From Mesorhizobium sp. AR02 (GTDB taxonomy: Bacteria > Pseudomonadota > Alphaproteobacteria > Rhizobiales > Rhizobiaceae): a DNA stretch of 64,000 nt. Where the stretch lies: contig NZ_CP080531.1 of NCBI RefSeq assembly GCF_024746835.1, forward strand, positions 186,001 through 250,000, in the 5' to 3' direction. Positions 1,307 to 34,738 of this stretch are shown piece by piece (positions within the stretch are counted from its first letter, which is position 1; every line of letters begins with the position of its first letter). A program made the position numbers and the translations under genes. Under the pieces are notes generated by a model. It was not told the origin of the DNA, did no database searches, and worked only from the letters and a program-made list of their open reading frames with translations.

Positions 1307-2031
1307 GCATGGTCGAGTTCAAGAAGGTCTCGAAGCAATTCGGCGCGCACCGTGTGTTGCAATCTATCGACCTTGCCGTCGATCGTGGCGAGGTCGCGGT
1401 GGTGATCGGCCCGTCCGGGTCAGGCAAGTCGACCATGCTTCGCTGCATCAACGTGCTGGAGAAGGTGAGCGACGGCGACCTTTTGGTCGACGGCCTCAGC
1501 GTGCTTGGCAACCCGCGCGATATCAGGCGCATCCGGCTCGAGGCCGGCATGGTGTTCCAGCAGTTCAACCTGTTCCCGCATCTGACGGCCATGCAGAATG
1601 TGATGTTCGGCCCGGTCCGCTCACGCGGCAAGAGCAAGGCAGAGGCGCGCGAGATCGCCGCCGCGCTGCTGCAGAAAGTCGGCCTTGGCGACCGGATGAA
1701 CCACTATGCGTCGCAGCTTTCGGGCGGCCAGCAGCAGCGCGTGGCCATTGCCCGTTCGCTTGCCGTCGGACCGAAGCTGATGCTGTTCGACGAGCCGACA
1801 TCGGCGCTTGATCCGGAGTTGCGGCAGGAAGTGCTCAGGGTCATGCAGACACTGGCGATGGAGGGCATGACGATGATCGTGGTGACCCATGAAATGGGTT
1901 TTGCCAAGAAGGTTGGCTCTCGCCTGCTGTTCATGGATGGTGGCCAACTCGTCCACGACGGCAAGCCAACAGACTTGCTGTCGCACCCGCCAAGCGAACG
2001 GTTTCGCGAATTCCTGCAGCACGTTCACTGA
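1303..2031 (+). CDS. Polar amino acid ABC transporter ATP-binding protein
   Basis: ATPase subunit of 242 residues that powers the importer encoded just upstream. Walker A is GPSGSGKST at residues 36-44, the Q-loop lies in VFQQFNLFP, the ABC signature is LSGGQQQR, Walker B is [12 protein letters not shown], and the H-loop histidine is in VVTHEMGFAK. This is the GlnQ/HisP type, with one nucleotide-binding domain and no regulatory extension. The ATG start overlaps the permease stop. A serine hydrolase gene follows after 14 bases and is probably in the same transcript. Confidence 0.95.
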   Translation: MSMVEFKKVSKQFGAHRVLQSIDLAVDRGEVAVVIGPSGSGKSTMLRCINVLEKVSDGDLLVDGLSVLGNPRDIRRIRLEAGMVFQQFNLFPHLTAMQNVMFGPVRSRGKSKAEAREIAAALLQKVGLGDRMNHYASQLSGGQQQRVAIARSLAVGPKLMLFDEPTSALDPELRQEVLRVMQTLAMEGMTMIVVTHEMGFAKKVGSRLLFMDGGQLVHDGKPTDLLSHPPSERFREFLQHVH

Positions 2032-2045
2032 CGGAGCATCCGACC

Positions 2046-3233
2046 ATGATGAAAACATCGGCTTTCAAGGCCGCCTATGGGTTCAACCGCGACGAGGCCC
2101 GGCTCGGCAACTGGCGCGCCGCCCCATGGAATGTCTGGGCGTTCCGTCATGTCAGCGAATTCATCCCGACAGCGCGCATCGCGGCGACGCCTGGCCTGAT
2201 CGAAGATCCGGTCGTCGATCCCGAGGATTTGCTGCGCCAGAAGTTCTCCCTCAACGGTGAAAGGATCACAGTCGCCGAGGCCCTTCGCGAGACCTCAACC
2301 GACGCCATGGTGGTCATGAAATCCGGCCGCATCGTCGCCGACGTCCACGCGCCTGACTTCACCCTGCAGAGCCGGCACATCCTGTTTTCAACCAGCAAAT
2401 CGGTGACCTCGATCGTCGCCGGCATTCTGCGTGATGACGGCTTGCTCGATTTCGATGAACTGGTGCCGCGCTACGTGCCGGAGCTCAAATTCTCGGTCTA
2501 TGGCGATGCGCGGGTGCGCGATGTCCTTGATATGCGGGTGAGCCTGGATTTCGAGGAGGTCTATCACGATCCACACGGCCCCTACGCGCGCTATCGCCGG
2601 GCCGGCCTGCTCGATCCCTGCGAACCCGGCGAAGAGCCTGAAACGGTCGTCGCGTTCATCGCCGGGCTGAAAAAAGGCCAGGGGGACCACGGCGGCGTCT
2701 ATCACTACGCCTCCCCCAATTCCGACGTTCTGGGCTTGATCATCCAGGGCGCTTCTGGGCAGCGTTTTCCGGATCTCGCCTCGGAGCGCCTGTTTCAACC
2801 GCTCGGCGCCAGGCAGGATGCCTATGTCACGGTCGATCGAGCCGGCACACCGCGCACGGGCGGTGGCATCAACATGACGCCGCGCGATCTCGCGCGCATC
2901 GGCGAAATGATGCGGCAGGGCGGCGTCGCCAATGGAAGGCGTATCGTCTCGCAGGCCTGGGTGCACGACACCATCACCGGCGGCTCGTCCAAGGCCTGGT
3001 CCGAAAGCACTTCAGCGAGTTGGCTGCCGCAGGGCCGTTACCACAACAAATGGTATCAGACAGGGACCAGCAACGACGCCTTCTTCGCGCTCGGCATCCA
3101 TGGCCAGTGGCTCTATGTCGATCCGCGGGCCGAGATGGTCATCGCGAAGTTCTCGTCACAGCCCGATGCCATTGTCGACGACGCCAAGGATTTCAATCTT
3201 GCCCTGTTCGATGCGCTGGCGAAGATCGCCTGA
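2046..3233 (+). CDS. Serine hydrolase, beta-lactamase/NylB family
   Basis: Protein of 395 residues in the class C beta-lactamase/penicillin-binding-protein fold family, closest in layout to 6-aminohexanoate-dimer hydrolase-type enzymes. The nucleophile motif SxxK is S115-T-S-K118, the Y-x-S/N element is Y221-A-S223, and a C-terminal LGIHGQW segment fits the HxG/KTG position. No signal peptide is seen, so it is probably cytoplasmic. It starts 14 bases after the ABC ATPase gene with a GGAG ribosome site, so it probably acts on the imported compound, for example by hydrolysing an amide or ester of an amino acid derivative. That role is inferred from context only. Confidence 0.85.
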   Translation: MMKTSAFKAAYGFNRDEARLGNWRAAPWNVWAFRHVSEFIPTARIAATPGLIEDPVVDPEDLLRQKFSLNGERITVAEALRETSTDAMVVMKSGRIVADVHAPDFTLQSRHILFSTSKSVTSIVAGILRDDGLLDFDELVPRYVPELKFSVYGDARVRDVLDMRVSLDFEEVYHDPHGPYARYRRAGLLDPCEPGEEPETVVAFIAGLKKGQGDHGGVYHYASPNSDVLGLIIQGASGQRFPDLASERLFQPLGARQDAYVTVDRAGTPRTGGGINMTPRDLARIGEMMRQGGVANGRRIVSQAWVHDTITGGSSKAWSESTSASWLPQGRYHNKWYQTGTSNDAFFALGIHGQWLYVDPRAEMVIAKFSSQPDAIVDDAKDFNLALFDALAKIA

Positions 3234-3278
3234 ACTTGGCGAGATCGGGCGAACGTCCAACTTCTCGAATGACGCTAA

Positions 3279-4232
3279 TCAATTCGCAGCCGGTTTCTTG
3301 CGTGCGGGATAACCGTTGGCATGCGGTGGTATCGCCTTAAGATAGGCGGCGATGGCGGAACGATCCTCCGGCGTCAGTTCGGCCATGTTGCGCTGCACGT
3401 CGACCATGGCGCCGCCGACGGAATCGAAATCGGGCGTGAAACCGGTTTCGAGGTAGTTGGCGATATCGGCTTCCGACCAGTTGGCGATGCCGCCCTCGCC
3501 CGATGTGATATTCGACACGATGCCGCTGCCTTCGGCGGCCACGGCACCGGCAAGCCATTCACTTTTCTTGGTGCCGCCTGCGAAGTCGCGTGGCGTGTGG
3601 CATTCGCCGCAATGACCAGGCCCCTCGACCAGATAGCGGCCGGCCACCACCGGATCAGGCGCGCCATCGGGCAAGGCAACAACAGGCCGGTCACTGAGAT
3701 AGAGGCGCTTCCACAGGCCGATGCCACGCCTGATGTTGAACGGGAACGCCAGCGAATTGCCCGGCGCCTTGCCGGCGACTGCCGGCAGGGTCTTCAGGAA
3801 GGCGTAGAGATCGGCAATGTCTGATGGCTTCATGCGCGCGTAGGACGCGTAGGGAAAGGCCGGATAGAGATGCTCGCCCGAGGGCGACACGCCCTTCAGC
3901 ATGGCGTTGGCGAGATCCTCGACCGACCACGCACCGATGCCATCCTTTGGGTCTTGCGAAATGTTGGGCGGCACGAAAGTGCCGAACGGTGTCTTGAGTT
4001 CGAGGCCGCCGACGAGCTGAAGCCGCACATCGCCCTGCGAGCCCGGTTTTGCATGGCAGGAGGTGCAGCCACCGGCATAGAAAATGCGCTTGCCGCGACC
4101 CGCGTCGCCCGGCCCGAGTTGCGCCAGTGCCGTCGCGTCAAGCTTGACCGGCGCCGACAGCAGCCAGCCAGCAGCCGCGCCGGCGCCACCCAGAACGAGA
4201 GCCACGCCGACGAGCTTCTTCAGCCATGCCAT
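3279..4232 (-). CDS. Membrane-anchored di-haem cytochrome c
   Basis: Protein of 317 residues with an N-terminal membrane anchor (about residues 4-25) and two class I cytochrome c domains. The haem sites are CTSCH in the first domain and CGECH in the second. The layout matches di-haem cytochromes that pass electrons from periplasmic dehydrogenases to terminal oxidases. The ATG at 4232 (MAWLKKLVG) is preferred over an in-frame ATG at 4283, because the longer form would overlap the upstream cytochrome gene by over 40 bases and add a non-signal-like tail. It lies 8 bases downstream of the other cytochrome gene, so they form a two-gene unit. Confidence 0.9.
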   Translation of the reverse strand: MAWLKKLVGVALVLGGAGAAAGWLLSAPVKLDATALAQLGPGDAGRGKRIFYAGGCTSCHAKPGSQGDVRLQLVGGLELKTPFGTFVPPNISQDPKDGIGAWSVEDLANAMLKGVSPSGEHLYPAFPYASYARMKPSDIADLYAFLKTLPAVAGKAPGNSLAFPFNIRRGIGLWKRLYLSDRPVVALPDGAPDPVVAGRYLVEGPGHCGECHTPRDFAGGTKKSEWLAGAVAAEGSGIVSNITSGEGGIANWSEADIANYLETGFTPDFDSVGGAMVDVQRNMAELTPEDRSAIAAYLKAIPPHANGYPARKKPAAN

Positions 4233-4240
4233 GGCTGAGA

Positions 4241-4678
4241 TCAGCCCTTCTTGACCCTGTAACTCTGATGGCAGGTGCCGCAATCCGAGCCGATGATGCC
4301 GAGTTGCGCCTTCAGCGCATCGACATCGGCGGGAGCTGCTGCGACGGCGGCCTTGACGTCGGCGAGATACTTGTCCCCGGTGGCCTTGAAGCCGGCCATG
4401 TCTTCCCAGATCTTCGGCCCCGCCGTGGTGTCGCCGGCGTCGCTGCCTTTCGGGAACAACGCGTCGGCGTCGAACTTCTCGGCATTCGCCTGCAATGCCT
4501 GGAGTTGCGCTAGCACGGCAGCGGCATCAAAGGGGTCCTCGCCCTTGACTACTTTCGAAATGCCGCCGGCGATCTTTCCACGTTCCTTCATCAGAGCCTG
4601 CCGGTCGAGGATCGGGTCGGCGAAGGCCGCCGAACCGGCGAAGGCGAGCATAGAGATGGCGATGACAAGCTTTCTCAT
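4241..4678 (-). CDS. Cytochrome c' / c556-type protein
   Basis: Small periplasmic cytochrome of 145 residues. A signal peptide covers about residues 1-20 (ends AFADP). The single haem-binding motif CGTCHQSYR sits near the C-terminus, which is diagnostic of the four-helix cytochrome c'/c556 family (class II). It probably takes part in periplasmic electron transfer or nitric-oxide binding. It is the first gene of a two-gene operon with the di-haem cytochrome, which suggests they exchange electrons. Confidence 0.92.
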   Translation of the reverse strand: MRKLVIAISMLAFAGSAAFADPILDRQALMKERGKIAGGISKVVKGEDPFDAAAVLAQLQALQANAEKFDADALFPKGSDAGDTTAGPKIWEDMAGFKATGDKYLADVKAAVAAAPADVDALKAQLGIIGSDCGTCHQSYRVKKG

Positions 4679-4796
4679 TCAATTGGCTCCATGATGAAGG
4701 CATTTCAGGACAGGACGTTAACGGATGCGGCGGACGGAATATTCCTTTGCTCGGACGATTTTTGCCGGGCCTTCGCAGCCACCGACATCGCTCCAG

Positions 4797-4824
4797 AAAA
4801 AGAAAAGCCCCGGATTGCCGGGGC
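4797..4824 (-). terminator. Rho-independent terminator of the superoxide dismutase gene
   Basis: On the minus strand a 7-bp perfect GC stem (GCCCCGG pairing with CCGGGGC, 4-base loop, 4807-4824) is followed by TTTTCTTTTT. It lies 16 bases past the sodB stop codon. This is the clearest intrinsic terminator in the window. Confidence 0.9.
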
Positions 4825-4839
4825 CTTTCTGACGATCGA

Positions 4840-5439
4840 TCACTTCGCCTTTTCGTAGAGTTCCAGCACATGATCCCAGTTGATCAGGCTGTCGACGAAC
4901 GCCTCGAGATATTTCGGGCGGGCGTTGCGGTAGTCGATGTAGTAGGAGTGCTCCCAGACGTCGACGCCGAGGATCGGTGAGGCGCCGTGGACGAGCGGAT
5001 TCTCGCCGTTCGGGGTCTTCGAGATCGCCAGCTTGCCGTCCTTGACCGAAACCCAGGCCCAGCCCGAGCCGAACTGCGTCGTGCCCGCGGCGATGAAATC
5101 AGCCTTGAACTTGTCGTAGCCGCCGAGATCGCTGTCGAACGCCTTTTGCAGCGCGCCCGGCAGCTTGTTGCCGCCGCCGCCCTTCTTCATCCACTTCCAG
5201 AAATGGATGTGGTTGTAGTGCTGGGCTGCATTGTTGAAGAGACCGGCATTCTTGCCGAACGACTGCTTGACCACTTCTTCGACCGACAGGTCGCCCATGC
5301 CGGCTTCCGCGGCCAGCTTATTGCCGTTGTCGACATAGGCCTTGTGGTGCTTGTCGTGGTGATACTCCAGCGTCTCTTTCGACATGTAGGGCTGCAGGGC
5401 CTCATAGTCGTAAGGCAGAGCGGGCAATTCAAAAGCCAT
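4840..5439 (-). CDS. sodB: Superoxide dismutase (Fe/Mn)
   Basis: Superoxide dismutase of 199 residues, normal length for bacterial Fe/Mn enzymes. It converts superoxide to oxygen and hydrogen peroxide. Metal-ligand regions are visible: the N-terminal YHHDKHHKAYV segment, the HFWKWM region and the C-terminal DVWEHSYYIDY motif that supplies an Asp and a His. No signal peptide, so cytoplasmic. A GAGGGAG ribosome site precedes the ATG. Its own terminator follows, and a terminator-like hairpin lies upstream, so it is probably monocistronic. Iron or manganese preference cannot be decided by eye. Confidence 0.96.
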   Translation of the reverse strand: MAFELPALPYDYEALQPYMSKETLEYHHDKHHKAYVDNGNKLAAEAGMGDLSVEEVVKQSFGKNAGLFNNAAQHYNHIHFWKWMKKGGGGNKLPGALQKAFDSDLGGYDKFKADFIAAGTTQFGSGWAWVSVKDGKLAISKTPNGENPLVHGASPILGVDVWEHSYYIDYRNARPKYLEAFVDSLINWDHVLELYEKAK

Positions 5440-5458
5440 GGGTAGTACTCCCTCGTGG

Positions 5459-5483
5459 AAAAATCCGGTGTGGATACCGGATT
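5459..5483 (-). terminator. Terminator-like hairpin between the aminotransferase gene and sodB
   Basis: AATCCGGT pairs perfectly with ACCGGATT (8-bp stem, 6-base loop, 5462-5483), and on the minus strand the stem runs into five T residues. It sits after the aminotransferase gene and 20 bases before the sodB start. It could end the upstream transcript or act as an attenuator in the sodB leader. Confidence 0.6.
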
Positions 5484-5616
5484 AAGATAGGTCTGGATTG
5501 AGCTGGGACAACTCCGGAAGTGAAGCGCCGGTTCCCTTTCTAAGCGGGTTCCAGAAAACTGTCACACGGTTTTCCTGCGGCGAACCGCGCAGCGACAAAA
5601 CGGCCGGGCTGGCGCG

Positions 5617-6495
5617 TCAGCCAGCCGACGTCGAATGCGCCCAGTCCCAATAGAGCTCGCGCGCCTTCTTGGCCACCGGCCCGGGTTGCAAATTGCGATC
5701 CTCGATGCGCGTGATCGGCACCACCTTGGAATGGTTGCCGGTCGAAAAGATCTCGTCCGCTTCGAGGAAATCCCGAACCGACAGTGTCTTTTCCGTCGTC
5801 TTGAACCCATACTCGCCGAGCAGCGTCATCGTGCGCGAGCGGGTAATGCCGGACAGGAAGGTGCCGTTCGGCGCCGGCGTCAGCACATGGCCATCCTTGA
5901 CCAGGAAGATGTTGGAGCTTCCGGTCTCGGCGACATTGCCCAGCATGTCCAGCACCAGCGCATTGTCGAAGCCACGCATCTTGGCTTCGAGGATGGCGCG
6001 GCCATTGTTGGGATAGAGGCATCCGGCCTTGGCGTTGGTCGGCATGGTCTCGATCGTCGGACGCCGGAACGGCGACACCGTCACCGAAAACCCGGTTGGC
6101 GAGATCATCGGCGATTCATAGAGGCAGAGGCAGAAACGGGTCGAAGCGGGATCGGCCGGCACGCCCATATAGCCGCCATGCTCGGCCCAGTACATCGGCC
6201 TGATATAGACCGCTGTCTTGCCGTCGAACTTTTTCAATCCATCCCAGGTCAGCCCGACGATCTGTTCGGGCGACATGTTCGGCTTGAGGCCAAGTGCGAT
6301 CGCCGAGGCGTTCACCCGCCTGGCATGGAGGTCGAGGTCGGGCGCCACGCCCTCGAACCAGCGCGCCCCGTCGAACACGCTGGTGCCCAGCCACATGGCA
6401 TGGCTGCGCGGCCCCAGAATGGCGACATTGCCCTCGTACCAGTCGCCATCGACGAAAGTCCATGTCGCGGATTGCGCCGCTGCCGCCAGTGTCAT
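5617..6495 (-). CDS. Branched-chain-type aminotransferase (PLP fold class IV)
   Basis: Protein of 292 residues of the class IV PLP aminotransferase family, annotated in rhizobia as a branched-chain amino acid aminotransferase. The PLP-binding lysine is in TNAKAGCLYPN (about residue 156). The phosphate-binding segment ETGSSNIFLVKDG and the closing segment ITRSRTM are also present. It would transfer the amino group of Leu, Ile or Val to 2-oxoglutarate. D-amino-acid aminotransferase or 4-amino-4-deoxychorismate lyase are less likely relatives. It is divergent from the dehalogenase gene and has no obvious operon partner. Confidence 0.85.
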   Translation of the reverse strand: MTLAAAAQSATWTFVDGDWYEGNVAILGPRSHAMWLGTSVFDGARWFEGVAPDLDLHARRVNASAIALGLKPNMSPEQIVGLTWDGLKKFDGKTAVYIRPMYWAEHGGYMGVPADPASTRFCLCLYESPMISPTGFSVTVSPFRRPTIETMPTNAKAGCLYPNNGRAILEAKMRGFDNALVLDMLGNVAETGSSNIFLVKDGHVLTPAPNGTFLSGITRSRTMTLLGEYGFKTTEKTLSVRDFLEADEIFSTGNHSKVVPITRIEDRNLQPGPVAKKARELYWDWAHSTSAG

Positions 6496-6651
6496 CGCGT
6501 TATCCCGTTCCGATCAATCTTGTGTGACAACATTGGATGATGCTTTGGCCGCTGCCGTCAACGGGCATAGGGGGAGTTTTGTTGAGGCCAGCGGCGGGCG
6601 CGATGCAATCAAGGCTTGCACCTTGCCCCGCCTCGCCTCAAAACTGTTGCC

Positions 6652-7314
6652 ATGCAATACGCCGCCTATGTTTTCGACGCCTACGGCACGCTGTTCGACG
6701 TGCACGCCGCCGTGCGCCGGCATGCCGATCAGATCGGCCCGGATGGCCAGTTGCTGTCCGAAATCTGGCGCGCCAAGCAGCTCGAATATTCCTGGGTGCG
6801 CACGCTGATGGGCGCCTATGCCGATTTCTGGCAACTGACCGAACAGGCGCTCGACTTCGCCTTGCGCAAGGTCCCTTCGGCAGATCCCGGTCTCAGGTCA
6901 AAATTACTGGAAGCCTACTGGCGGCTGGATTGCTACCCGGAAGTGCCGGCCGTGCTGAAGGCGCTCAAGGCTTCGGGAGCCAGGCTGGCAATCCTCTCCA
7001 ACGGCTCGCCCGAAATGCTGGAAGCGGCGGTCAAGTCCGCCGCGCTCGACCAGGTCCTGGACGACATCTATTCCGTCGATGCGGTGCGGCGCTTCAAGAC
7101 CGATCCGGCGGTCTACGACATGGTCGCCACCGGTTGGCGCCTCTATCCCGGCGCGGTGTCCTTCCAGTCCTCCAATCGCTGGGACATTGCGGGCGCCACC
7201 AAATTCGGCTTCCGCACGGTTTGGATCAACCGCTCCAACCAACCCGAGGAATACCGGGACTTCCCGCCGGCCCTGATCCTGCCAACCCTCGAAGCCTTGG
7301 TGCCCGGCAGCTAG
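6652..7314 (+). CDS. Haloacid dehalogenase, type II (HAD superfamily)
   Basis: HAD-superfamily hydrolase of 220 residues resembling L-2-haloacid dehalogenases. Motif I is FDAYGTLFDVH near the N-terminus (nucleophile Asp), motif II is LSNGSPEML, the motif III lysine is in RFKTDP, and a SSNRWDIAGA segment matches motif IV. It would remove halide from short 2-haloalkanoic acids. The ATG at 6652 (MQYAAYVFDA) is chosen because the family starts just before motif I; an in-frame ATG at 6616 adds 12 non-conserved residues. The true substrate may differ, since many HAD relatives act on phosphates. Confidence 0.87.
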   Translation: MQYAAYVFDAYGTLFDVHAAVRRHADQIGPDGQLLSEIWRAKQLEYSWVRTLMGAYADFWQLTEQALDFALRKVPSADPGLRSKLLEAYWRLDCYPEVPAVLKALKASGARLAILSNGSPEMLEAAVKSAALDQVLDDIYSVDAVRRFKTDPAVYDMVATGWRLYPGAVSFQSSNRWDIAGATKFGFRTVWINRSNQPEEYRDFPPALILPTLEALVPGS

Positions 7315-7482
7315 GGCTGTGGCCCGGGCGCCACAGTGGCGGCGCAGTCACAGCTTCGCCTTTGTTTGTCCACGTTCGGGCCAGAATCGGAACCGCCTAT
7401 CGCGCCAGGTGTTGTCAGGCACCCGCAACGGCGGTCGGCGTATTGACGCTTTGTTGCGATTTGAGTCTTAAAGAAGGCAGTC

Positions 7483-8313
7483 ATGTCCACAACCGAAATC
7501 GAATCCTTTCGCCTGAGCCGTCGCGGCTTCCTCAACGCCGCAGCATTGGGCGCCGCATCGATCGCGGTTTCCGCATGCGCCACTACCGGGCCGGGCCCGG
7601 TCGAGCCGCCACCGCCAACCTATGTCGAGCCGCCGCTTGCCGATTATGCGTCGATGTACGCGGCCGTCAGCGATGGCGACTTCGACCTGCCGGCCATCCC
7701 CGTCGACAGGATCGATCCGCAGTTCCTGCGCCAGATCGTTCCCGACCCGACCGGGCAGAAGCCCGGAACGATCGTCGTCGATACGACAGGCCATTTCCTC
7801 TATCTGGTTCGTCCGGGCGGCCAGGCCATCCGCTATGGCGTCGGTCTCGGCCGCGCCGGCTTCGAATGGTCGGGCGACGCCGTCGTGCAGTGGAAGCAGA
7901 AATGGCCGAAATGGACACCGCCGGATGAAATGGTCGCCCGGCAGCCGGAATTGAAGCAATACAGCGCCGACAATGGCGGCATGCCTGGTGGGCTGAAGAA
8001 CCCGCTCGGCGCCCGCGCGCTCTATCTCTTCCAGGGCAATGTGGACACGCTTTACCGCCTGCACGGCTCGCCGGAATGGCGCTCGATCGGCAAGTCGGTT
8101 TCGTCGGGCTGCGTGCGCCTGATGAACCAGGACATCATCGACCTCTACGACCGTGTACCTTCGAAAACCCCTGTCATCGTGACCAGCGATGCCAGCCAGC
8201 CGATGGTGGCGGCGGCGACGGCGAACCACAAGGCCATTCCGATCGACGCCGGCGTGCCGGACGGATCGGTGCTGCTCGGGCCGGTCAAGGCGATAACGAA
8301 CGCGATCTTCTGA
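7483..8313 (+). CDS. L,D-transpeptidase (YkuD family), TAT/lipoprotein-type signal
   Basis: Exported protein of 276 residues. The N-terminus has a twin-arginine signal (LSRRGFLNAA, from residue 11) that runs into a possible lipobox ending at Cys32 (AVSAC). A Pro-rich linker (about 38-50) leads to the YkuD catalytic domain (about 93-225). The catalytic motif has His194 in HGSPEWRS and Cys210 in SSGCVRL. It forms 3-3 peptidoglycan cross-links or attaches proteins to peptidoglycan in the periplasm. This group is multi-copy in rhizobia, so the individual role is unknown. It is convergent with the CHAT operon. Confidence 0.93.
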   Translation: MSTTEIESFRLSRRGFLNAAALGAASIAVSACATTGPGPVEPPPPTYVEPPLADYASMYAAVSDGDFDLPAIPVDRIDPQFLRQIVPDPTGQKPGTIVVDTTGHFLYLVRPGGQAIRYGVGLGRAGFEWSGDAVVQWKQKWPKWTPPDEMVARQPELKQYSADNGGMPGGLKNPLGARALYLFQGNVDTLYRLHGSPEWRSIGKSVSSGCVRLMNQDIIDLYDRVPSKTPVIVTSDASQPMVAAATANHKAIPIDAGVPDGSVLLGPVKAITNAIF

Positions 8314-8370
8314 TCCGCCCGAGGTGTATATGGCGGCGGTCAAGTGATCGGTTATTCGTCTGGTGGGGTT

Positions 8371-9303
8371 TCAGTCCGCCATGCGGCTGATGCCCACCAC
8401 GAAATAGTTGTACGGCAGCAAGCTGCGCGGGCTTCCGCGAGAGGTGATGCTGCCTGACGTCGGATCGTAGACCCAGTCGGCCCAATCCCAGATTGGAGAC
8501 AACTCCTCCTGCACCTGCAGGGCGATGTATGCGCCTTCAGCAAGCCTGGCACGGCCAGGGATATTGCTGAAGTCCAGGCCCATGACGACGTCCTGGACCG
8601 GGACGTTTCGATTGCGTTTGGCTATCACGCGGGTCAATCCATAAGCCATCTCGGCGAACGGTTTCACCACGGGCTGAATGGTCTTGGTGATTTCGAGGCC
8701 CTGTTTGAATGCATCGGATTCGAGCAGATCGAGGAAACTCTCGTCGGCGTCGTTCTTGACATTTACGGTGTAGCAGCGAAATGCCAGCCCCTCTTCGCCA
8801 ACGTTGAGCCCGACGAAGATGGGGTAGCCAATGATTCCGGCCTGCTGGCCTTCCCGTACGCGGTAGGTCGAGTTGAAATGAAGGTCCGCGTCCGGGCCGG
8901 TGGATTGGTTGCGTGCATAGAAATCGAACAGGACACGGTGGGCACCTCCGCCCGGATAGTCGGCCACACGCAGCCAGTTAAGCGTGACCTTGACCCGCGC
9001 CCCACGCAGTCTCTTGTCCGGTTTGATGTTGCCGGCATGCACGATTGGCAATGGCTCCCGGGCTCCAGGCGGATGCGGCGCGATGTGCCCGAAGACGTGG
9101 GTCGTGTAACGCCACCGTCGCGGCCCGAACAAATCGTCGAACACTCCCGGGAGGCCGAAGCTACCGGGCGCTTTTTTATGACTGTCCCCGGCCGGTGCCT
9201 CGATAGTTTCGCCCGCTTCCCGCAGCGCCTCGGCGATTGCATCGTGCGACCGTTTGCCGATGACCGGTATGTCGTCGAACCAGCCTGTCTGAGGGATGCT
9301 CAT
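8371..9303 (-). CDS. Unknown protein, translationally coupled partner of the CHAT-STAND protein
   Basis: I do not recognise this 310-residue protein. It has no signal peptide, transmembrane segment or obvious catalytic motif. Residues 1-60 look flexible, polar and charged. From about residue 65 alternating hydrophobic strands dominate (VKVTLNWLRVAD, HRVLFDFYARN, GLAFRCYTVNV), which suggests one or two beta-sandwich units. A helical segment at about 185-225 is followed by more strands and a hydrophobic C-terminus (LLPYNYFVVGISR). Its ATG overlaps the TGA of the CHAT gene by 4 bases, so it is the second gene of that operon. Candidate roles are protease substrate, co-effector or regulator; none is demonstrated. 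It lacks the N-terminal Met-Cys of bacterial gasdermins. Confidence 0.8.
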   Translation of the reverse strand: MSIPQTGWFDDIPVIGKRSHDAIAEALREAGETIEAPAGDSHKKAPGSFGLPGVFDDLFGPRRWRYTTHVFGHIAPHPPGAREPLPIVHAGNIKPDKRLRGARVKVTLNWLRVADYPGGGAHRVLFDFYARNQSTGPDADLHFNSTYRVREGQQAGIIGYPIFVGLNVGEEGLAFRCYTVNVKNDADESFLDLLESDAFKQGLEITKTIQPVVKPFAEMAYGLTRVIAKRNRNVPVQDVVMGLDFSNIPGRARLAEGAYIALQVQEELSPIWDWADWVYDPTSGSITSRGSPRSLLPYNYFVVGISRMAD

Positions 9304-12300
9304 GATGGGACCTCTCCTTGCTGGTGTCTTACCGTTTCGATGAATTCGATCAGTGCGCGAGACAAAGCCACCACATGTGCTCCACCAGGGCCCAATTCTC
9401 CGGCACGAGACAATGAGGATCGGGCGTAAATCAGCGCCTCGTCAAATTCTTTCATCCTGAGTTTGAGCCGCGCCATTTCTCGACAGCCCATCGCGGCGCC
9501 CAAGAGGTCGTGCATGCCTTCAGCGATCTGAATGGCCTTTTCGTAATGAACCGCGGCATTCTCCTGATGGATTTTCGATTGTGAATAATACCCGCCGTCG
9601 TCGAGGATGTTTCCAATTAGAAGGTTCAAGTGCATCTCCGCCTGCGGATAGCCATCCTCCTGGGTATCCTTGGCCTCCAACGCTGCCGCCAAGGCTCCAT
9701 TGAACCGCTCCTGGACGACAGAAACGTCGTTGGTCGTGACAATGGCATGATGAAACCGTTTGTAGCGCAATTGCGCCAATTCGTACTTGCACATGCTGCG
9801 CGTCGCCGAGTCGCGCGAGTCCAGATGGTCAAGCGCGCGCTCATACCATTCCTGCGCGACTTCTATGTTCTGCTCGCCTTGATCGATGTCGGCATAACAA
9901 TGCCCAATGTGCATAGCCATCGGGCCCAGCTCATTCTCCAAATCCAGCCCCAAAGCCAGCTGGTACACGGTCTCGCCGAGTTGGGCGGCTTTTTCCAACT
10001 GGTCGGTTGCCTTTCGCCCGACAATGCTGGCGATGTGCATACGCACCGCGTGGACATACACCTGTGCCGCCTCGTGCAACTGCGGCGACAAATCCTGAGG
10101 TTGAATCTCTGCAATAGGGGATCCGAATTCCGTCTCCACACGCTCTTCGAGCATGCCGAAAAGTCGGTTTGCTTCGCTGACACGGGCATCCTGGCAAGCG
10201 AGAGAATGCGCCATGCCGATCGTCGCAAACCGATACTCTTCCAACCCCTCTCGCGATACCATCGTCACCGGGTCCAGCATCCTTTCGATGGTCGCAATCG
10301 CGATACGGCGGGATTCAGCATGTCGGCCAGAACTGTCGTATGAATTTCTGATTATCCAGGTCGCACTCAAGTACTCCTGCCAGAGGCAGTGGCGTTCGGC
10401 GAGCCGCCGCGCGTGGAGCAAATTTGGCTCGTGGATCTTTACGATGAATCGGCCGACTGACTGATTTTCGGTGTTATGGCGGGCAAACGAACAATAGCTG
10501 ACGACGCAGGTAACAAAGATTTTGGAGACCTCAGCCAATGGCGATCGTACGTCACCGTCATTTTCCGGATATGCGCTGTCGAACATTTTCTTGAAATACC
10601 AAGGCAGTGCAGGGTGGACGCTGAAAAGCCGGTCGCCAAGCTTTGTTAAAAGACCTATCTCGGCCGCCCGGTTCAAGAGGATCGCCCATTCCTGCATATG
10701 CGTGTCAGGGCCGCCGAATATACCTGGATCGCCGTGACTTATCGCTTCCAGCCGCGCCAGGATACCGACGTCGACAACGCTCTGAAAAAGGTGGAGCAGC
10801 GCCAGCCTTTTGCGCTCAGCTTCGCTGAAGGACCGATCGAAGCCATAGGCCAGAGATGCGCCGAGTGATCGGCTGCGGCCTTGCTCCTCGTTTTCGTCAA
10901 AGGCCGCCTCGCCATTCCGCAGCCGCTCGACCATGGCGTCTGCCGCGTCCCGAGTCGCAACCCCATCCCGCAAAGCCTGGCGGATGACCACCGTAAGCGT
11001 CAAAGGATTGCCTTGGGAGAATTCCAGCAAAGGCGTCATTACGTCCACATTTCGCATTTCGGAGTGGCGACGCCGGATGATGGCGGTGGCGAGCAGGCGA
11101 CGGTCCTGCCACGACATTGGCGGGACTCGCACTCGGACCGGAAGGTCGCCTAGCCAGTTGGTCTCGTCCCGCCGCGAAGTCAGCAGCACTTTGGCCTTGG
11201 TATGAGCGAGATCACGCAGGAAATCCCGCAAATCGGCCTGCTCGTCCTCTGTCCACGCCGATTCGGCGCCAGATGGAAAGCCCGTGATCTGCTCGACATT
11301 GTCCCATATCCAGAGAGCTGGATTTTGTTTCAGTATTTCAATCGCCAAGGTTCGGCGCCTGTCGTCGTCCAGCGTAAGCCAGGGCACACGCTTCGCCTCC
11401 AGAAGAGGAGCGAACCGCGTTCCGATCTGGTCCACCACCCGAGACAATGGAAGCCGTTGCTCAAAGCTGCTGAACAGCACCGGACCATCCACCCCACCGG
11501 TGACGGAATACCAGCGCGCGAACTCCGCCGCCGTGGTCGTCTTGCCACTGCCTGCATAGGCATGCAGCAGCACGATCGCATCCCGGTCGAAAGCGCGATC
11601 AAGGGCGAGCAGCGTCTCGTCACGACCGATGAAGCCGACATCGGGTTGCCTCGGCAGTTCAGCTGTGGCGCGGCTTGCGCTCCAATCGGTCTCATCGAAA
11701 AGCGCAGCGGCTGAATCACGCTCCGGAAACAGCCTCATCGGGGCGGCTTCGTAGATCGCCGGAACAGACCAGTCCTGCAGCTCGATCGGTTTGTCGACAA
11801 CAGTGCGGGTGCGTTCGTCACCGAGATGTTTACGCGCGCGGTTCGCGGCACGGCCGAGCGTCTGGCCCTGTGCAAGTGCTTGATAGAACTCGCCGACGAA
11901 CTGGGCCGCCGTCGCCACGTAGACGTTGTAGCGCATGGCCACGACGCCGGTGACTCCTGCATCCACCACGGACTGCGCGAAGGATCCATAGGCGCGAACC
12001 TGATCCTCATGGGTACGTGGCGCATTCGCATCGTCGTGAGGTTCTGTCACTCCGCTCTCGGAAGCGCCAAGCCCAGAGCGGCAAGCATTCAGCACGAGCG
12101 TTGGAACGCGTGTCTCGTAGAGGAGGTTGCCGACCGTCGTCCCGTCCACCGCCTGCACCCGGCTGGGATGCTTGTCATCCTCAAAACAGATGTAGCCTCG
12201 CGCCGCATCCGTTGCCGATGGCGCGGACAGCCGGCGTGGATCGAACATCTTCTGGAGGTTGAGAGCAGCCAGGCCTTTGGAATCGATGTAGAGGCCATGG

Positions 12301-12992
12301 CCGTCGAAATGAACTACATGGTACGGCGTTCCTTTTTCCTTTGCACGGCGCAATGTTTGACCCAACATGGCGAAAGTCGCCGGCCGAAGCACGTCAAGGT
12401 CGACAGCTGCCGAACCGGCTTCCGTCAGTGCCTTGACGATATGCATTGCGACAGAACGAAACGGTACGTCGTCGGCGCCGGCGGGACGACATATCACGAC
12501 TAGAATTCGCACCGGCCCGGCCGCAACGTCAGCCATGCGCGGTATACGAGCGACCTGAGATTGAACACGCACGAACTCTCCGCTCGTCAGCGCCAACGGT
12601 GCGTCGGAACGAGGATCGCGCAATAGTTCCCAAGGAAAGGCATGTGCCTCGCGGATGCCGGCCGAAATCTCGATTCGGGTGTCGGCGATGTCATCGCAGA
12701 CATCGCTCCAGAGCCGGATCGTGTCACGATTGGCTTCAAAGATCGCGCTGAACAGGGATCGGCCGATATCGGCCATCCTTCGTTCAACGCCGGCTGCAAC
12801 CTGCGGCGCAGGATCGGCGCTTCGTTCGAGGTAGTCCTCCAGATACCAGCGGAGCCGCGCCTGGTCCGTCTCGGTCATAATAGGAGCTATCGTTGCTGTC
12901 GCGGTACGACGCGCCCCGCGGCCTTCCAACGAGATTTCAATCGGATGGGCGCCACCCTCTACAGTTAGATGACTAAGTCGTAGCACAAGCAT
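9300..12992 (-). CDS. CHAT protease - STAND (NB-ARC-like) ATPase - TPR protein
   Basis: Large cytoplasmic protein of 1230 residues with three parts. The N-terminal CHAT (caspase-like) domain spans about 100-420, with the catalytic pair His232 in HFDGHG and Cys304 in LNACRSG. A STAND ATPase follows (about 450-700), with P-loop AGSGKTT (Lys484), Walker B-like LWIWDN (Asp564), LLTSRRDE and a GNP motif in SQGNPLTL. A winged-helix-like region (about 705-800) leads to TPR-like helical repeats up to the C-terminus. This is the layout of bacterial NLR-like sensors. The ATG at 12992 is chosen over a TTG at 12995 because GAGGTG lies 6 bases upstream. Base composition is visibly less GC-rich than in neighbours, suggesting transfer. 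It overlaps the 310-residue partner gene. A defence role is inferred. Confidence 0.92.
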   Translation of the reverse strand: MLVLRLSHLTVEGGAHPIEISLEGRGARRTATATIAPIMTETDQARLRWYLEDYLERSADPAPQVAAGVERRMADIGRSLFSAIFEANRDTIRLWSDVCDDIADTRIEISAGIREAHAFPWELLRDPRSDAPLALTSGEFVRVQSQVARIPRMADVAAGPVRILVVICRPAGADDVPFRSVAMHIVKALTEAGSAAVDLDVLRPATFAMLGQTLRRAKEKGTPYHVVHFDGHGLYIDSKGLAALNLQKMFDPRRLSAPSATDAARGYICFEDDKHPSRVQAVDGTTVGNLLYETRVPTLVLNACRSGLGASESGVTEPHDDANAPRTHEDQVRAYGSFAQSVVDAGVTGVVAMRYNVYVATAAQFVGEFYQALAQGQTLGRAANRARKHLGDERTRTVVDKPIELQDWSVPAIYEAAPMRLFPERDSAAALFDETDWSASRATAELPRQPDVGFIGRDETLLALDRAFDRDAIVLLHAYAGSGKTTTAAEFARWYSVTGGVDGPVLFSSFEQRLPLSRVVDQIGTRFAPLLEAKRVPWLTLDDDRRRTLAIEILKQNPALWIWDNVEQITGFPSGAESAWTEDEQADLRDFLRDLAHTKAKVLLTSRRDETNWLGDLPVRVRVPPMSWQDRRLLATAIIRRRHSEMRNVDVMTPLLEFSQGNPLTLTVVIRQALRDGVATRDAADAMVERLRNGEAAFDENEEQGRSRSLGASLAYGFDRSFSEAERKRLALLHLFQSVVDVGILARLEAISHGDPGIFGGPDTHMQEWAILLNRAAEIGLLTKLGDRLFSVHPALPWYFKKMFDSAYPENDGDVRSPLAEVSKIFVTCVVSYCSFARHNTENQSVGRFIVKIHEPNLLHARRLAERHCLWQEYLSATWIIRNSYDSSGRHAESRRIAIATIERMLDPVTMVSREGLEEYRFATIGMAHSLACQDARVSEANRLFGMLEERVETEFGSPIAEIQPQDLSPQLHEAAQVYVHAVRMHIASIVGRKATDQLEKAAQLGETVYQLALGLDLENELGPMAMHIGHCYADIDQGEQNIEVAQEWYERALDHLDSRDSATRSMCKYELAQLRYKRFHHAIVTTNDVSVVQERFNGALAAALEAKDTQEDGYPQAEMHLNLLIGNILDDGGYYSQSKIHQENAAVHYEKAIQIAEGMHDLLGAAMGCREMARLKLRMKEFDEALIYARSSLSRAGELGPGGAHVVALSRALIEFIETVRHQQGEVPS

Positions 12993-13046
12993 CAAGCACC
13001 TCGCAGCGGAGTGACGCGCGTTGGACCGGCCGATATCTGTGACAGA

Positions 13047-13090
13047 GTTACATATATAACATTATAGTAAAGCGTGAGCCATGCAATCAA
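13047..13090 (-). promoter_or_regulatory. Promoter of the CHAT-STAND operon, with an overlapping AT-rich dyad
   Basis: On the minus strand TTGATT (13085-13090) and a perfect TATAAT (13061-13066) are separated by 18 bases, a good sigma-70 promoter. Just downstream, at the expected transcription start, lies an imperfect palindrome GTTACATATATAAC (13047-13060) that could be an operator. The stretch 12996-13349 between the CHAT gene and the upstream ATPase gene holds nothing else I recognise and is unusually AT-rich for this genome. Confidence 0.65.
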
Positions 13091-13349
13091 GCAACTGAAT
13101 GAAATTGCCCGGATATCGACGCGAATCCGGGATGCAATCTTCTGCTTGAAAGACAGGCAATCATTGCTGCGATAGACGAGCGGCAAAAATGCGACCGATC
13201 GTCTTGATGGCTAAATGAACGGCAGTCTGATCAGGCCGGAACCTTTGACCTACCGACGGAAGAGTCACTACTGGCACATAGCCGACGGCTCTGGGTTCAA
13301 AACATCGGGATTTATCCGAAAACCGCTTCGCGCTTTTCGGTGGGATGTC

Positions 13350-14897
13350 CTACCGCCCCCGCGAAAGGCTCCCCAGGATCCCGCGCACGATCGCGCGTCC
13401 GACCGACGAGCCAACGGACCGAACGACCGACTTGATCGCGGCCTCCGCCACAGTCTGGCGATTGGAGGGGCGCGGCGCCGGCGCCCGACGCCCACCTGAC
13501 TGCGGTGCGGGATCGTCATTGCCGAATCCCGGAATGGTCCAGCGCGAACCGCCAGTGCCTGCCTGCTGCGCCTGCGCTTCGGCGTCCTGCGCCTCCTTGG
13601 CCCTCTTCTGCAGCATCTCGAAGGCCGATTCGCGGTCGATGACCTGATCGTACTGGCCGGCGACCGGGCTTTCCGCGATCAGTTTTTGCCGCTCGGTGGG
13701 GGTTATCGGTCCAAGCCGCGACGACGGCGGACGGATCAGCGTGCGCTGCACCATGGACGGCACACCCTTGTCCTCCAGTGTCGAGACCAGCGCTTCACCG
13801 GTGGCGAGCTGGGTGATGGTGGTGGCGCAGTCGAAGTCGGGATTCGGCCGGAACGTCTCGGCCGCCGTCCTCACCGCCTGCTGCTCTCGCGGCGTATAGG
13901 CGCGCAGCGCGTGCTGAACGCGATTGCCGAGCTGGGCCAGCACCTTCTCGGGGATATCGAGGGGGTTCTGGGTAACGAAATAGACGCCGACGCCTTTCGA
14001 GCGGATCAGGCGGACGACTTGCTCGACCCGATCGATCAGCACTTTCGGCGCTTCGTCGAACAGAAGATGCGCCTCGTCGAAGAAGAACACCAGCTTCGGC
14101 TTATCGGGATCGCCGACTTCCGGCAACACCTCGAACAGTTCCGACATCAGCCACAACAGGAAGGTCGCGTAGAGCCGCGGATTCATCATCAGCTTGTCGG
14201 CGGCAAGCACGCTGATCGCACCGCGCCCATCACGCGTGGTGCGCATGATGTCGGAGATACGCAGTGCCGGCTCACCGAAGAAATGCGCGGCACCCTGCTG
14301 CTCCAGGACCAACAGGGTGCGCTGGATTGCTCCCACGGAAGGCTTGGTGACATTGCCGTAGCGCGAGCCGATCTCGTCGGCGCGCTCGGCGATGTTGGAG
14401 AGCAGCGCCTGAAGATCCTTCATGTCGAGCAGCAGCAGGCCTTCCTCGTCGGCCAGACGGAAGGCGATGTTCATGATGCCTTCCTGCGCCTCGGTCAGGT
14501 TCATCAGGCGCGACAACAGCAGCGGCCCCATCTCCGAGACGGTGGCGCGGATGGGATGGCCCTGCTCGCCGAACAGGTCCCAGAAGATGACCGGAAATTC
14601 CTGGAAATCATAGGGCTCGAGCTTGACCTGCGCGGCCCGCTTGACCAGGAAATCCTGCGCCGTGCCCATCATGGAAATGCCGGACAAGTCACCCTTGATA
14701 TCGGCGCAGAACACAGGCACGCCGGCATTCGAAAAGCCTTCGGCCAGGATCTGCAAAGTGACGGTCTTGCCGGTGCCGGTGGCACCGGTGACCAGGCCGT
14801 GGCGATTTCCATATTGCAGCAGCAACTGCTCTGGGCGCTGATAGCTGTCGTCGGGCTTGCGGCTGGCGCCGATGAAAATACTGGTGTCGTCAGCCAT
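13350..14897 (-). CDS. HerA-like ATPase, DUF853 family
   Basis: Protein of 515 residues of the HerA/FtsK-like P-loop ATPases, DUF853 branch (YjgR-like). Walker A is GATGTGKT at 38-45, and Walker B is in [14 protein letters not shown]. The C-terminus is low-complexity and basic, rich in Arg, Pro and Gly. These ATPases are presumed hexameric motors acting on DNA or proteins, but the cellular role of DUF853 is not settled. The ATG at 14897 ([12 protein letters not shown]) is chosen; an open extension to 15353 would overlap the divergent mutase gene. It is upstream of the CHAT gene on the same strand but separated by 357 bases and a separate promoter. Confidence 0.88.
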
Positions 14898-14970
14898 ATG
14901 TCGGGTCTCCGCAAACTGATGAGTCAAAAGCCAGCCTTTGGCCGAAGGTATAGTGAGGCTGCTGCACAGC

Positions 14971-15031
14971 GACAATGATAATTGTCCAAAGCCGGGCCAA
15001 TCGTCCAAATCGGGCCAACCGCCGAAATCGG
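14971..15031. repeat. Dyad and imperfect direct repeats in a divergent intergenic region
   Basis: Between the DUF853 gene and the mutase small subunit gene there is a perfect dyad, GACAAT-gata-ATTGTC (14971-14986). It runs into two imperfect direct repeats of 19 and 18 bases (starting GTCCAAA at 14984 and 15003) and a partial third copy (15021-15031). This could be a regulator-binding array for either gene. The remaining bases of 14898-15195 show no other feature. Confidence 0.5.
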
Positions 15032-15195
15032 ATTTTTGGAACTTGCGGATTTTGCTGGTGTTTGGCAATCGTCCATGGTTCGTCGACGGAGCCGCCCTAT
15101 ATATCTGGCGGATCGAATTCAGCCCTCGGAAGTGCATTGCATTGCGGTAATGAACCGGGGACCGTAGACTGAATGCTCCCGGCTGGTGCGGCCGC

Positions 15196-16656
15196 ATGAA
15201 ACGAGGAGGATGGATGGGCGCCGGAGCCTTGATCAGGGGTACTGAACCTGTGAACGCAGAGCGCCAGCGTTGGCTGGCACTGGCGGAAAAAGCGTTGGCC
15301 GGCTCATCCTTCGAGGAAAAGCTGGTCTCGCACACCGACGACACCATCCGCATCGAGCCACTCTACGACCGTGCGACCGGATCCGAGCCGATCGTGCGCG
15401 CTAATCCTCGGTCGCCCTGGATCGTCAGCCAGCGCGTCGACGACCCCGATGTCGATCGCGCCAAGGCGCAGGTCCTGGATGATATCGCGCAGGGCGCGAC
15501 GGGATTGTCGCTCGTCTTCGAAGGTGCTCCGAACGCATTCGGCTACGGTCTGCCGAGGACTGCACAGGCGCTGGAAACGGTGCTGGAGGGTGTACCCCTC
15601 AACCGGATCCAGATCCGCATCGACACCCACCCCTGGAGCCGCCCCATGGCCGACTGGCTGGTGGCGTTCCTGAGCAAGCGCCGCTCCGATCCGGCAAAGC
15701 TTAACCTGTCGTTCGGCATCGATCCGGCGGCAATCCTTGCTGGCACCGGCCGGCTGCGCATGTCGATCGAGGCGCTGCAGGAATCGATGCCGCAATCGCT
15801 GGCACATTTCTTCTCGATGGGCGTTCCCGGCGTGCTGCTGGAGGCGGACGGTCGCGTCTTCCACAATGCCGGCGCCACGGAGGCGCAGGAACTCGGCATC
15901 ATGTTGGCTTCGGCGGTCTCGTATCTGAGAATGTTCGAGAAGGCGCGGCAGCCGCTGGTCTATGCGGCACCGCATATCGGCTTCGCGCTCAGCGTCGACC
16001 AGGACCAGTTCCTGTCGATGGCCAAGGTGCGGGCGCTGCGCAGGCTGTGGGCACGGATGCAGGAGGCCTGCTCGATCCCCAACTCCACGGCCAACATCCA
16101 TGCCGAGACATCATTTCGCATGATGACGGCATTGGACCCGGAGACCAACATCCTGCGCACGACGATCGGCTGTTTCGCCGCGGCCGCGGGCGGAGCCGAT
16201 TCGATCTCCATCCTGCCTCATACGATCGCGCACGGCCTGCCGGCGCCTTTTGCCCGCCGGGTCGCGCGCAACGCGCAGTTGATCATGGCCAATGAAAGCC
16301 ATGTCGATTACGTCGCCGATCCCGCCTATGGGTCCGGCGCGGTCGAAACGCTGACATCAGACCTTTGCGAAGCCGCGTGGGCGGAGCTGCAAACGATCGA
16401 AGCCGAAGGGGGCGTATTGTCCAGCCTTCGGGACGGACACATCCAGAAGCGCGTTCGCGCAGCGGCCGCCCTGCGCGATGCCGCCTTCAAGGCCGGTGAG
16501 CGGGCCATCATCGGCACCACACTCTATCCGCAGAAGAGCGAGCGTCCGGTCGAGACGCTGGACGCAAAACAGCGGCCTGCTTTCACCGAAGGCGTCGTCC
16601 TGTGCGAACCGCTGTTTCCGGCCCGCATCGACCAATCCATCGGGGTGGCCTCTTGA
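15196..16656 (+). CDS. mutA: Methylmalonyl-CoA mutase small subunit
   Basis: Partner subunit of methylmalonyl-CoA mutase, up to 486 residues. It contains the TIM-barrel mutase domain but stops before the C-terminal cobalamin-binding domain, so it lacks any DxHxxG motif. The large subunit downstream keeps that motif and is the catalytic one. The start is uncertain: ATG 15196, ATG 15214 (next to a GAGGAGGA that sits only 3 bases away) or GTG 15250 (AGGGG 10 bases upstream) are all possible. The stop overlaps the next gene by 2 bases (TTGA). The pair interconverts methylmalonyl-CoA and succinyl-CoA in propionate and branched-chain amino acid use. Confidence 0.88.
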
Positions 16657-34012: not shown

Positions 34013-34043
34013 CGAAATGCGACAGAAGTGCTGCCATTGCCGC

Positions 34044-34072
34044 TTGCAGGAATGAAGTGTGGCGGCTATAAG
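34044..34072 (+). promoter_or_regulatory. Promoter of tRNA-Pro
   Basis: TTGCAG (34044-34049) and TATAAG (34067-34072) are 17 bases apart. Transcription would begin about 8 bases before the mature tRNA 5' end, as is usual for tRNA genes with a short leader. Confidence 0.75.
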
Positions 34073-34087
34073 CCCGCGGTCTGGTCA

Positions 34088-34164
34088 CGGAGTGTAGCGC
34101 AGCCTGGTAGCGCACCTCGTTCGGGACGAGGGGGTCGCAGGTTCAAATCCTGCCACTCCGACCA
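34088..34164 (+). tRNA. tRNA-Pro (anticodon CGG)
   Basis: A 77-base cloverleaf. The acceptor stem CGGAGTG pairs with CACTCCG, the D-loop holds AGCCTGGTAGC, and the anticodon stem CCTCG/CGAGG flanks loop TTCGGGA with anticodon CGG. The T-arm contains GGTTCAAATCC. The 3' CCA is encoded. It reads CCG proline codons, which are common in this GC-rich genome. A cluster of small accessory-type genes follows, but no integrase is seen. Confidence 0.97.
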
Positions 34165-34277
34165 GAAAAACAACGTGTTAGCGCATCCCGACTTTGGCGC
34201 TCAAACTGATATCACACCTGAGATACGGTGAGATGGGCCGCCTCCTCGGTGCAGCCCTTCCCTTTGTCGCCAACGCG

Positions 34278-34595: not shown

Positions 34596-34609
34596 AGCTG
34601 ACGTCGAGC

Positions 34610-34684: not shown

Positions 34685-34705
34685 GATCGTTCTCCTGTTG
34701 CCTGG

Positions 34706-34738
34706 AAAAGCCCGCGCCTCTGGCGAAGGAACGCGGGC
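34706..34738 (-). terminator. Terminator- or attenuator-like hairpin upstream of the 24-residue gene
   Basis: On the minus strand GCCCGCG pairs with CGCGGGC (7 bp, with an inner CCT/AGG pairing) and is followed by TTTT. It lies 22 bases ahead of the small membrane peptide gene, so it would act as a leader attenuator or end an unseen upstream transcript. The rest of 34685-35074 holds no gene I can support. Confidence 0.4.

What the first reader, a model, noticed from the sequence alone, without database searches (positions are those of the whole stretch)
9300..13090. CHAT protease-STAND ATPase-TPR protein: candidate NLR-like immune sensor
Seen: intact catalytic pair (His232, Cys304), P-loop Lys484, Walker B-like Asp564 and long helical repeats in one chain, in a lower-GC island with its own promoter between housekeeping genes. 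Known: bacterial STAND proteins (Avs, bNACHT) join an N-terminal effector, a nucleotide switch and a C-terminal sensor, and TPR-CHAT proteases act in the type III-E CRISPR (craspase) system. Inference: phage or stress recognition by the repeats triggers oligomerisation and protease activation. I cannot match this exact arrangement to a described system.
Basis: partly seen in the sequence, partly recalled or inferred. Interest (0 to 1): 0.85.

Follow-up and report, generated by a model that had tools for sequence, protein, structure and literature searches.

The report
Protease alarm with shared partner protein
A bacterium carries an acquired two-gene unit, a large NLR-like protease switch plus a small conserved partner protein that elsewhere also sits beside other, unrelated proteases, which suggests that the partner is a shared protease-triggered executor of bacterial self-defence.

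Summary
Window 9300-12992 (minus strand, 1230 aa) encodes a CHAT protease, a STAND/NB-ARC-like switch and TPR repeats. His232, Cys304, Lys484 and Asp564 are kept in 43 of 43 aligned homologues. It encodes a 310-aa protein with no significant match in the family libraries tried.

The ~5.0-kb pair is an acquired insert at a variable site between two housekeeping genes. CHAT-STAND was found in none of 60 related genomes searched.

The partner belongs to a patchily distributed family with a predicted C2-like beta-sandwich. Of 32 partner loci examined, 22 have a protease gene, or a remnant of one, alongside: 11 CHAT (9 STAND-TPR, 1 WD40, 1 iSTAND-like), 8 caspase C14, 3 subtilisin IetS of the IetAS defence system. 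Nine have none; one has only a weak trypsin match.

Best reading: a defence or cell-death unit in which sensor activation lets CHAT cleave, and so activate, the C2-like partner. Cleavage, membrane action and phage defence are inferred, not shown. The mechanism kind (protease plus cleaved effector) is known; I did not find this partner family or its multi-protease association in print.

The parts
9300..12992 (-). Gene 1: CHAT-STAND-TPR protein, 1230 aa, ATG start at 12992 (TTG at 12995 is an alternative; a database entry for the same protein, P0122, has 1192 aa, starting at Met39)
11769..12647 (-). CHAT protease domain, residues 116-408; His232 codon 12297-12299, Cys304 codon 12081-12083
11196..11633 (-). 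P-loop NTPase part of the STAND/NOD switch, residues 454-599; Lys484 codon 11541-11543, Asp564 codon 11301-11303
   Evidence: AAA_16 E=1.1e-6, below cut-off; 6mfv, CED-4 and NB-ARC fold matches; motif counts
9321..10394 (-). TPR superhelix, residues 867-1224, presumed sensor; the least conserved region (mean majority fraction 0.61 against 0.71-0.78 elsewhere)
8371..9303 (-). Gene 2: partner, 310 aa; 4-nt overlap with gene 1; conserved N-terminal motif (residues about 8-31), variable linker (about 41-60), C2-like beta-sandwich (about 64-310) with a helical insert (185-229)
8325..13346 (.). Inserted segment (approximate ends) absent from empty-site relatives
13061..13090 (-). Sigma-70-like promoter match, TTGATT-18-TATAAT (10 of 12); not above chance
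7483..8313 (+). Left flank: YkuD L,D-transpeptidase, a match in 61 of 61 same-genus genomes (own included)
13350..15353 (-). Right flank: HerA_C ATPase, a match in 61 of 61 same-genus genomes (own included)

Best explanation
A two-gene, horizontally acquired immune or regulated-cell-death unit. Gene 1 is an NLR-like sensor protease: the TPR arm senses an intruder or stress signal, the STAND/NB-ARC switch opens and oligomerises, and the CHAT protease turns on. Gene 2 makes an inactive C2-like protein that the protease cleaves, most likely in the variable linker between its N-terminal motif and the C2-like core. The released core then acts, probably at the membrane, to stop or kill the cell. Shown: both genes, the architecture, intact catalytic and nucleotide-binding residues, operon-like overlap, acquisition, and the partner's recurrent neighbourhood with CHAT, C14 and S8 proteases. 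Inferred: sensing, oligomerisation, cleavage of the partner, its site, membrane action and phage defence.
For: Architecture and motifs. 4-nt gene overlap. Protease gene, or a remnant of one, beside the partner in 22 of 32 partner loci, in three classes: CHAT 11, C14 caspase 8, IetS subtilisin 3 (one is a remnant). A tree of 29 of the 32 partners puts the C14-linked rows (7) and the S8-linked rows (2) each on one side of a branch, 100/100. CHAT and partner distances covary, r=0.68, 0 of 5000 permutations as high, 11 pairs (host phylogeny not controlled). IetA and IetS of the PADLOC defence library are matched at 4e-125 and 1.7e-244. Some caspase-linked loci also encode EAD10 with VMAP or HEAT-repeat domains, modules of described conflict systems (PMC7159879, passages). 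Precedent: a pro-nuclease activated by trypsin-like and caspase partners in several immune systems (PMC12799240: abstract, discussion and passages). C2-like fold: the 50 VIA-align rows shown are C2 domains or chains of proteins that (recalled) contain one.
Confidence: 0.55

Rival explanations
1. The partner is not the executor but a cofactor: an inhibitor, adaptor or membrane anchor that holds or positions the protease. The protease itself, cutting cellular proteins, is the executor.
For: The partner is more conserved than its protease (mean distance 0.39 against 0.55 in 11 pairs), as expected of a binding scaffold. It persists with an open frame beside an IetS remnant (G016). C2 domains commonly serve as targeting modules (general knowledge).
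Against: The same family beside three unrelated protease folds fits a shared substrate better than a fold-specific inhibitor. Distant CHAT-STAND genes and most plasmid IetAS loci occur without it.
Confidence: 0.25
2. The unit is a stress or developmental programme, or a transcriptional relay as in Csx29-Csx30, rather than anti-phage defence.
For: The closest studied TPR-CHAT acts on a sigma-factor inhibitor (PMC10028731, abstract). The site's other sampled cargo is mostly not defence genes. No partner was found in phages or viral contigs.
Against: Rare and patchy occurrence: own genome only among 385 sampled from its class, 6 of 386 Cyanobacteria. Association with IetAS and with EAD10/VMAP loci. 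The insert's two evident genes include no sigma factor or DNA-binding regulator.
Confidence: 0.15
3. The partner is an unrelated gene that merely travels with protease genes.
For: Copies without a protease alongside occur in 9 of 32 loci.
Against: Adjacency in 22 of 32, protease-class groups on the tree, and the 4-nt overlap.
Confidence: 0.05

Closest known systems
Bacterial and archaeal STAND/NLR-like proteins (Avs, bNACHT; STAND-TPR protein of PDB 6mfv)
   Same: Effector, NTPase switch, repeat sensor in that order (Avs and bNACHT recalled); NB-ARC-like motifs; 6mfv is the best fold match
   Different: The N-terminal effector is a CHAT protease, with a separate partner gene; target and phage activity unknown
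TPR-CHAT Csx29 of type III-E CRISPR (Craspase)
   Same: CHAT plus TPR in one chain and a separate protein substrate, Csx30 (PMC10028731, abstract, introduction and outline)
   Different: No STAND NTPase in Csx29 (recalled) and a different domain order; Cas7-11 and Csx30 were not searched for in this genome, and no such gene is evident in the insert
SAVED-CHAT (type III CRISPR)
   Different: Gene 1 has STAND-TPR where that protein has SAVED
Trypsin/caspase plus gated pro-nuclease pairs (Hachiman, AVAST, Lamassu, DRT, canu)
   Same: One effector family repeatedly paired with unrelated protease classes in immune loci (PMC12799240)
   Different: The partner here is a predicted C2-like sandwich, not an MBL nuclease; cleavage untested
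Bacterial gasdermins with their proteases
   Same: Small partner next to a protease, released by cleavage (recalled)
   Different: No sequence match in the libraries tried; the fold list shows C2-type chains, not gasdermins, which does not exclude one
IetAS (IetA AAA ATPase, IetS subtilisin)
   Same: The partner family is the third gene after IetAS on a Rhizobium plasmid and, with a broken frame, on an Undibacterium plasmid
   Different: The window's two genes match neither IetA nor IetS; CHAT and S8 are different protease families

Membership tests
CHAT peptidase family (PF12770) | Profile match above the curated cut-off | tested here: met
   64.2 bits against cut-off 24
CHAT peptidase family (PF12770) | Catalytic His and Cys | tested here: met
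   H232 and C304, 43 of 43
CHAT peptidase family (PF12770) | Proteolytic activity | not testable with these tools
   needs a bench assay
STAND/NLR-like NTPases | P-loop, Walker B Asp, sensor Arg, GxP and MHD-like His motifs | tested here: met
   K484, D564, R607, N662-P663 43 of 43; H793 42 of 43. The motif assignments are my own recall of NB-ARC motifs
STAND/NLR-like NTPases | NB-ARC/NOD fold | tested here: met
   6mfv E=1.3e-10, CED-4 (8jo0) E=8.7e-8, NRC1 NB-ARC (8bv0) E=1.8e-6
STAND/NLR-like NTPases | Curated Pfam STAND, NB-ARC or NACHT match above cut-off | tested here: not met
   AAA_16 29.7 bits against 32.6; NACHT, nSTAND3 and NB-ARC below cut-off. Sequence-profile test only; fold and motifs are met
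STAND/NLR-like NTPases | Ligand-driven oligomerisation | not testable with these tools
   -
Known anti-phage system of PADLOC-DB | Profile match of the window's genes to a defence family | tested here: not met
   Only SAVED_CHAT at E=0.001 for gene 1, nothing for gene 2
C2 domain superfamily (partner) | C2-type beta-sandwich fold | tested here: inconclusive
C2 domain superfamily (partner) | Sequence profile match | tested here: not met
   No Pfam C2 match; only DUF6882 at E=0.14
C2 domain superfamily (partner) | Membrane or Ca2+ binding | not testable with these tools
   -
Bacterial gasdermin (partner) | Gasdermin fold | tested here: inconclusive
   No gasdermin row in the 50 listed by either program; absence from the list does not exclude it
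IetAS | IetA and IetS genes | tested here: not met
   Neither window gene matches IetA or IetS at E<=1

The most novel reading that the evidence does not exclude
The 310-aa family is a previously undescribed class of proteolytically armed, membrane-targeting (C2-like) executioner that three unrelated protease folds (CHAT in NLR-like sensors, C14 caspases in EAD10/VMAP-type conflict loci, and the subtilisin IetS of IetAS) have independently recruited: a prokaryotic analogue of the gasdermin role with a different fold.
Probability: 0.3. Interest if true: 0.87.

Novelty: new variant of a known kind. Interest (0 to 1): 0.64.

Why it matters
Proteolytic activation of a cognate effector is emerging as a common principle in bacterial immunity (PMC12799240, discussion). 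A single partner family shared by CHAT, caspase and subtilisin proteases would point to what those proteases cut, which for caspase/EAD10 loci and IetAS I did not see stated in the passages and listings I looked at. It would also add a C2-like module to the list of executors. The prediction is directly testable with two genes and one point mutation each.

Tried and rejected
Single-protein reading: rejected because of the overlapping partner gene.

Defence island at the window's own site: not borne out. In 57 other same-genus genomes with both flanks on one contig, the gap is under 150 bp in 18, 150-1000 bp in 4 and 1-22 kb in 35 (3 further genomes have the flanks on different contigs). I scanned 48 proteins, from 17 of the 40 cargo stretches fetched. 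Of 75 Pfam families found, the 25 shown are mainly hydrolases, transporters, methyltransferases, cyclases and TPR. PADLOC gave 15 families at E<=1e-5, among them mad2/3/8 (4, 3 and 3 members), PycC models (up to 3), CARF (3), AriA (2), ATPase-Toprim (2) and HEC-02A (1); I did not validate these, and generic enzymes can cause such matches. In the more distant members of the genus some of the genes may be ancestral rather than inserted.

Gasdermin: none in the fold lists; the VIA list holds C2-type chains, the Foldseek list C2-type chains plus a few others such as alginate lyase and pro-activin. This does not exclude other folds.

Mobile-element ends: no convincing terminal repeats, and the junctions are only approximate.

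Partner in viral contigs (pattern scan), phage records, or a sample of 385 genomes of the class: none beyond the window's own. In the large group searches only 2-6 candidates a genome were scored, so weak or second copies may be missed. EAD10 on the caspases themselves is below cut-off where it appears. The NACHT match beside EAD10 and HEAT repeats in L156 is below cut-off.

Papers: ten searches showed no description of this partner or of a CHAT-STAND-TPR two-gene unit. The library holds open-licence papers only, and most hits were seen only in the listing; passages were read in PMC7159879, PMC8195603, PMC10907252 and PMC12799240.

Rows dropped before counts: a G095 C123 partner fragment (30 bits); two plasmid records with the same match (Tolypothrix PCC 7601, Microchaete) counted with Tolypothrix PCC 7712 as one locus and not opened. 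The tree uses 29 of 32 partner loci: L020 and L122 (broken frames) and L123 (178 aa) were left out, and L014 is labelled 'none'. In the Mantel test 5 of 11 pairs were taken as linked because both proteins list the same longest-contig length, not because the contig was seen. Of the 20 genomes, 17 have some match; in 6 of these it covers only the repeat region and was not counted as CHAT-STAND.

Full report

ACQUISITION. Among 60 other genomes searched (36 same genus, 24 same order) gene 1 has 0 matches and gene 2 has one, 35% identical, in G016. Each flanking gene has a match in 61 of 61 same-genus genomes, own included. Where both flanks share a contig (57 other genomes), the gap is under 150 bp in 18 and larger in 39. 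Ten of the 18 empty sites were fetched, and in all ten the window aligns up to 8313-8324 and again from 13347-13363. The insert is GC 0.586 against 0.629; GC3 is 0.655 and 0.736 for the two genes against 0.78-0.84 for six neighbours measured. The site takes many kinds of cargo in the sample scanned, so it is a variable site rather than a defence island.

THE PARTNER'S COMPANY. I examined 32 partner loci: 20 from the species-genome collection, the window, G016 (L024), three plasmid loci (opened from 5 records), a second copy in Symploca (L134) and six new cyanobacterial loci in five genomes. (a) CHAT-STAND-TPR alongside: window, L002, L004, L007 (only its N-terminus, cut by the contig end, about 0.8 kb from the partner), L008 (gene 1 in broken frames, a small ORF between), L009, L019, L020 (partner frame broken, order reversed, about 0.5 kb apart) and L021; nine in all. 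(b) CHAT-WD40 directly upstream (L016), and CHAT with a sub-cut-off iSTAND match followed by an AAA gene (L010). (c) Caspase C14: L123, L134 and all six of L151-L156, with gaps of 33-77 bp for the six; Pfam C14 is above cut-off in all eight. Of four neighbouring proteins from these loci that I scanned, three carry EAD10: with VMAP domains (L153), with HEAT repeats and a sub-cut-off NACHT (L156), and with an AAA-like part (L154). (d) Subtilisin: Rhizobium plasmid IetA-IetS-partner (PADLOC 4e-125 and 1.7e-244); Undibacterium plasmid IetA-IetS with a broken partner; G016 with an IetS C-terminal remnant and an open partner frame, next to what looks by eye like an IS66-type transposase. (e) A weak trypsin-like neighbour (L014, Trypsin_2 E=0.041, below cut-off). 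(f) None alongside in nine: L003, L005, L006, L011, L012, L013, L015, L017, L018; several of these lie near contig ends. Of the genomes of the 20 collection loci, 11 hold gene 1's CHAT-STAND part somewhere (G090 only as a 76-residue piece at a contig end, G095 a more distant one), including those of L005, L006 and L012. On a tree of 29 partners the seven C14-linked and the two S8-linked rows each lie on one side of a branch (100/100), while CHAT-linked and unlinked ones intermix. Distances of gene 1 and partner covary over 11 pairs, r=0.68, 0 of 5000 permutations (caveats under Tried and rejected).

RESULTS AGAINST. More distant CHAT-STAND proteins stand without the partner: 0 of 8 Chloroflexota genomes, and none at three plasmid loci opened. 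G470 carries a full-length close relative of gene 1 without any partner in the assembly, and G128 likewise with gene 1 cut by a contig end. IetS occurs in 63 plasmid records but the partner in only two of them; three other IetAS loci opened have none. The partner is rare: own genome only in 385 Alphaproteobacteria sampled, 6 of 386 Cyanobacteria (centre included), 1 of 392 Planctomycetota, the last being the centre genome. It was not found in phage or viral collections.

HOW IT MOST LIKELY WORKS. Sensing by TPR, a nucleotide-driven opening and clustering, and CHAT activation follow from the known behaviour of STAND proteins and CHAT proteases (general knowledge; Csx29 cleaves a separate protein, PMC10028731, abstract and outline). 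That the partner is the thing cut is inferred from one family recurring beside three unrelated protease folds, which a fold-specific inhibitor would not explain easily. The published precedent is the pro-nuclease paired with trypsin-like and caspase proteases in several immune systems (PMC12799240: abstract, discussion and passages). That partners persist without any protease alongside shows only that they are tolerated, which fits an inactive pro-form but also fits a non-effector. The C2-like fold suggests a membrane, but no such activity was tested.

NOVELTY. The kind (sensor protease plus cognate cleaved effector) is known. The partner family and its shared use by CHAT, C14 and S8 proteases were not found in ten paper searches of an open-licence library. 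I rate it a new variant of a known kind.

Noticed in passing
L137 (G016, same genus as the window) 865-8263: The only other same-genus partner found sits in a defence-like cluster: a Prok-E2_C/ThiF (BilD-like) protein, a SIR2-like protein, a PDC-M57-like protein, an IetS remnant and (by eye) IS66-type transposase genes.
   Followed up: partly
window 8325-13346 and the same site in other genomes: The gap between the YkuD L,D-transpeptidase and HerA_C genes is a variable insertion site: 39 of 57 other same-genus genomes carry 0.15-22 kb there, with differing cargo.
   Followed up: partly
fold search of partner model m2af35dcabccd: An uncharacterised giant-virus protein (Hokovirus HKV1, A0A1V0SF49, 323 aa) matches the partner model over 278 alignment columns, E=1.7e-5, 10% identity.
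   Followed up: no
L018 9947-10882; P0260: Partner homologues in archaea: a Thaumarchaeota assembly (46% identity in the best segment, no protease alongside) and a protein named as from a Hodarchaeota archaeon.
   Followed up: no
L152 2853-4910: One partner-linked caspase is fused to a DUF900 alpha/beta-hydrolase domain, a possible additional effector activity.
   Followed up: no
window 34001-37000: A second low-GC stretch (0.57-0.59) begins near a tRNA-Pro gene (34088-34164), a possible separate island.
   Followed up: no
L123 5734-6270: On the Tolypothrix plasmid the caspase-linked partner is only 178 aa and lacks the middle of the C2-like core.
   Followed up: no
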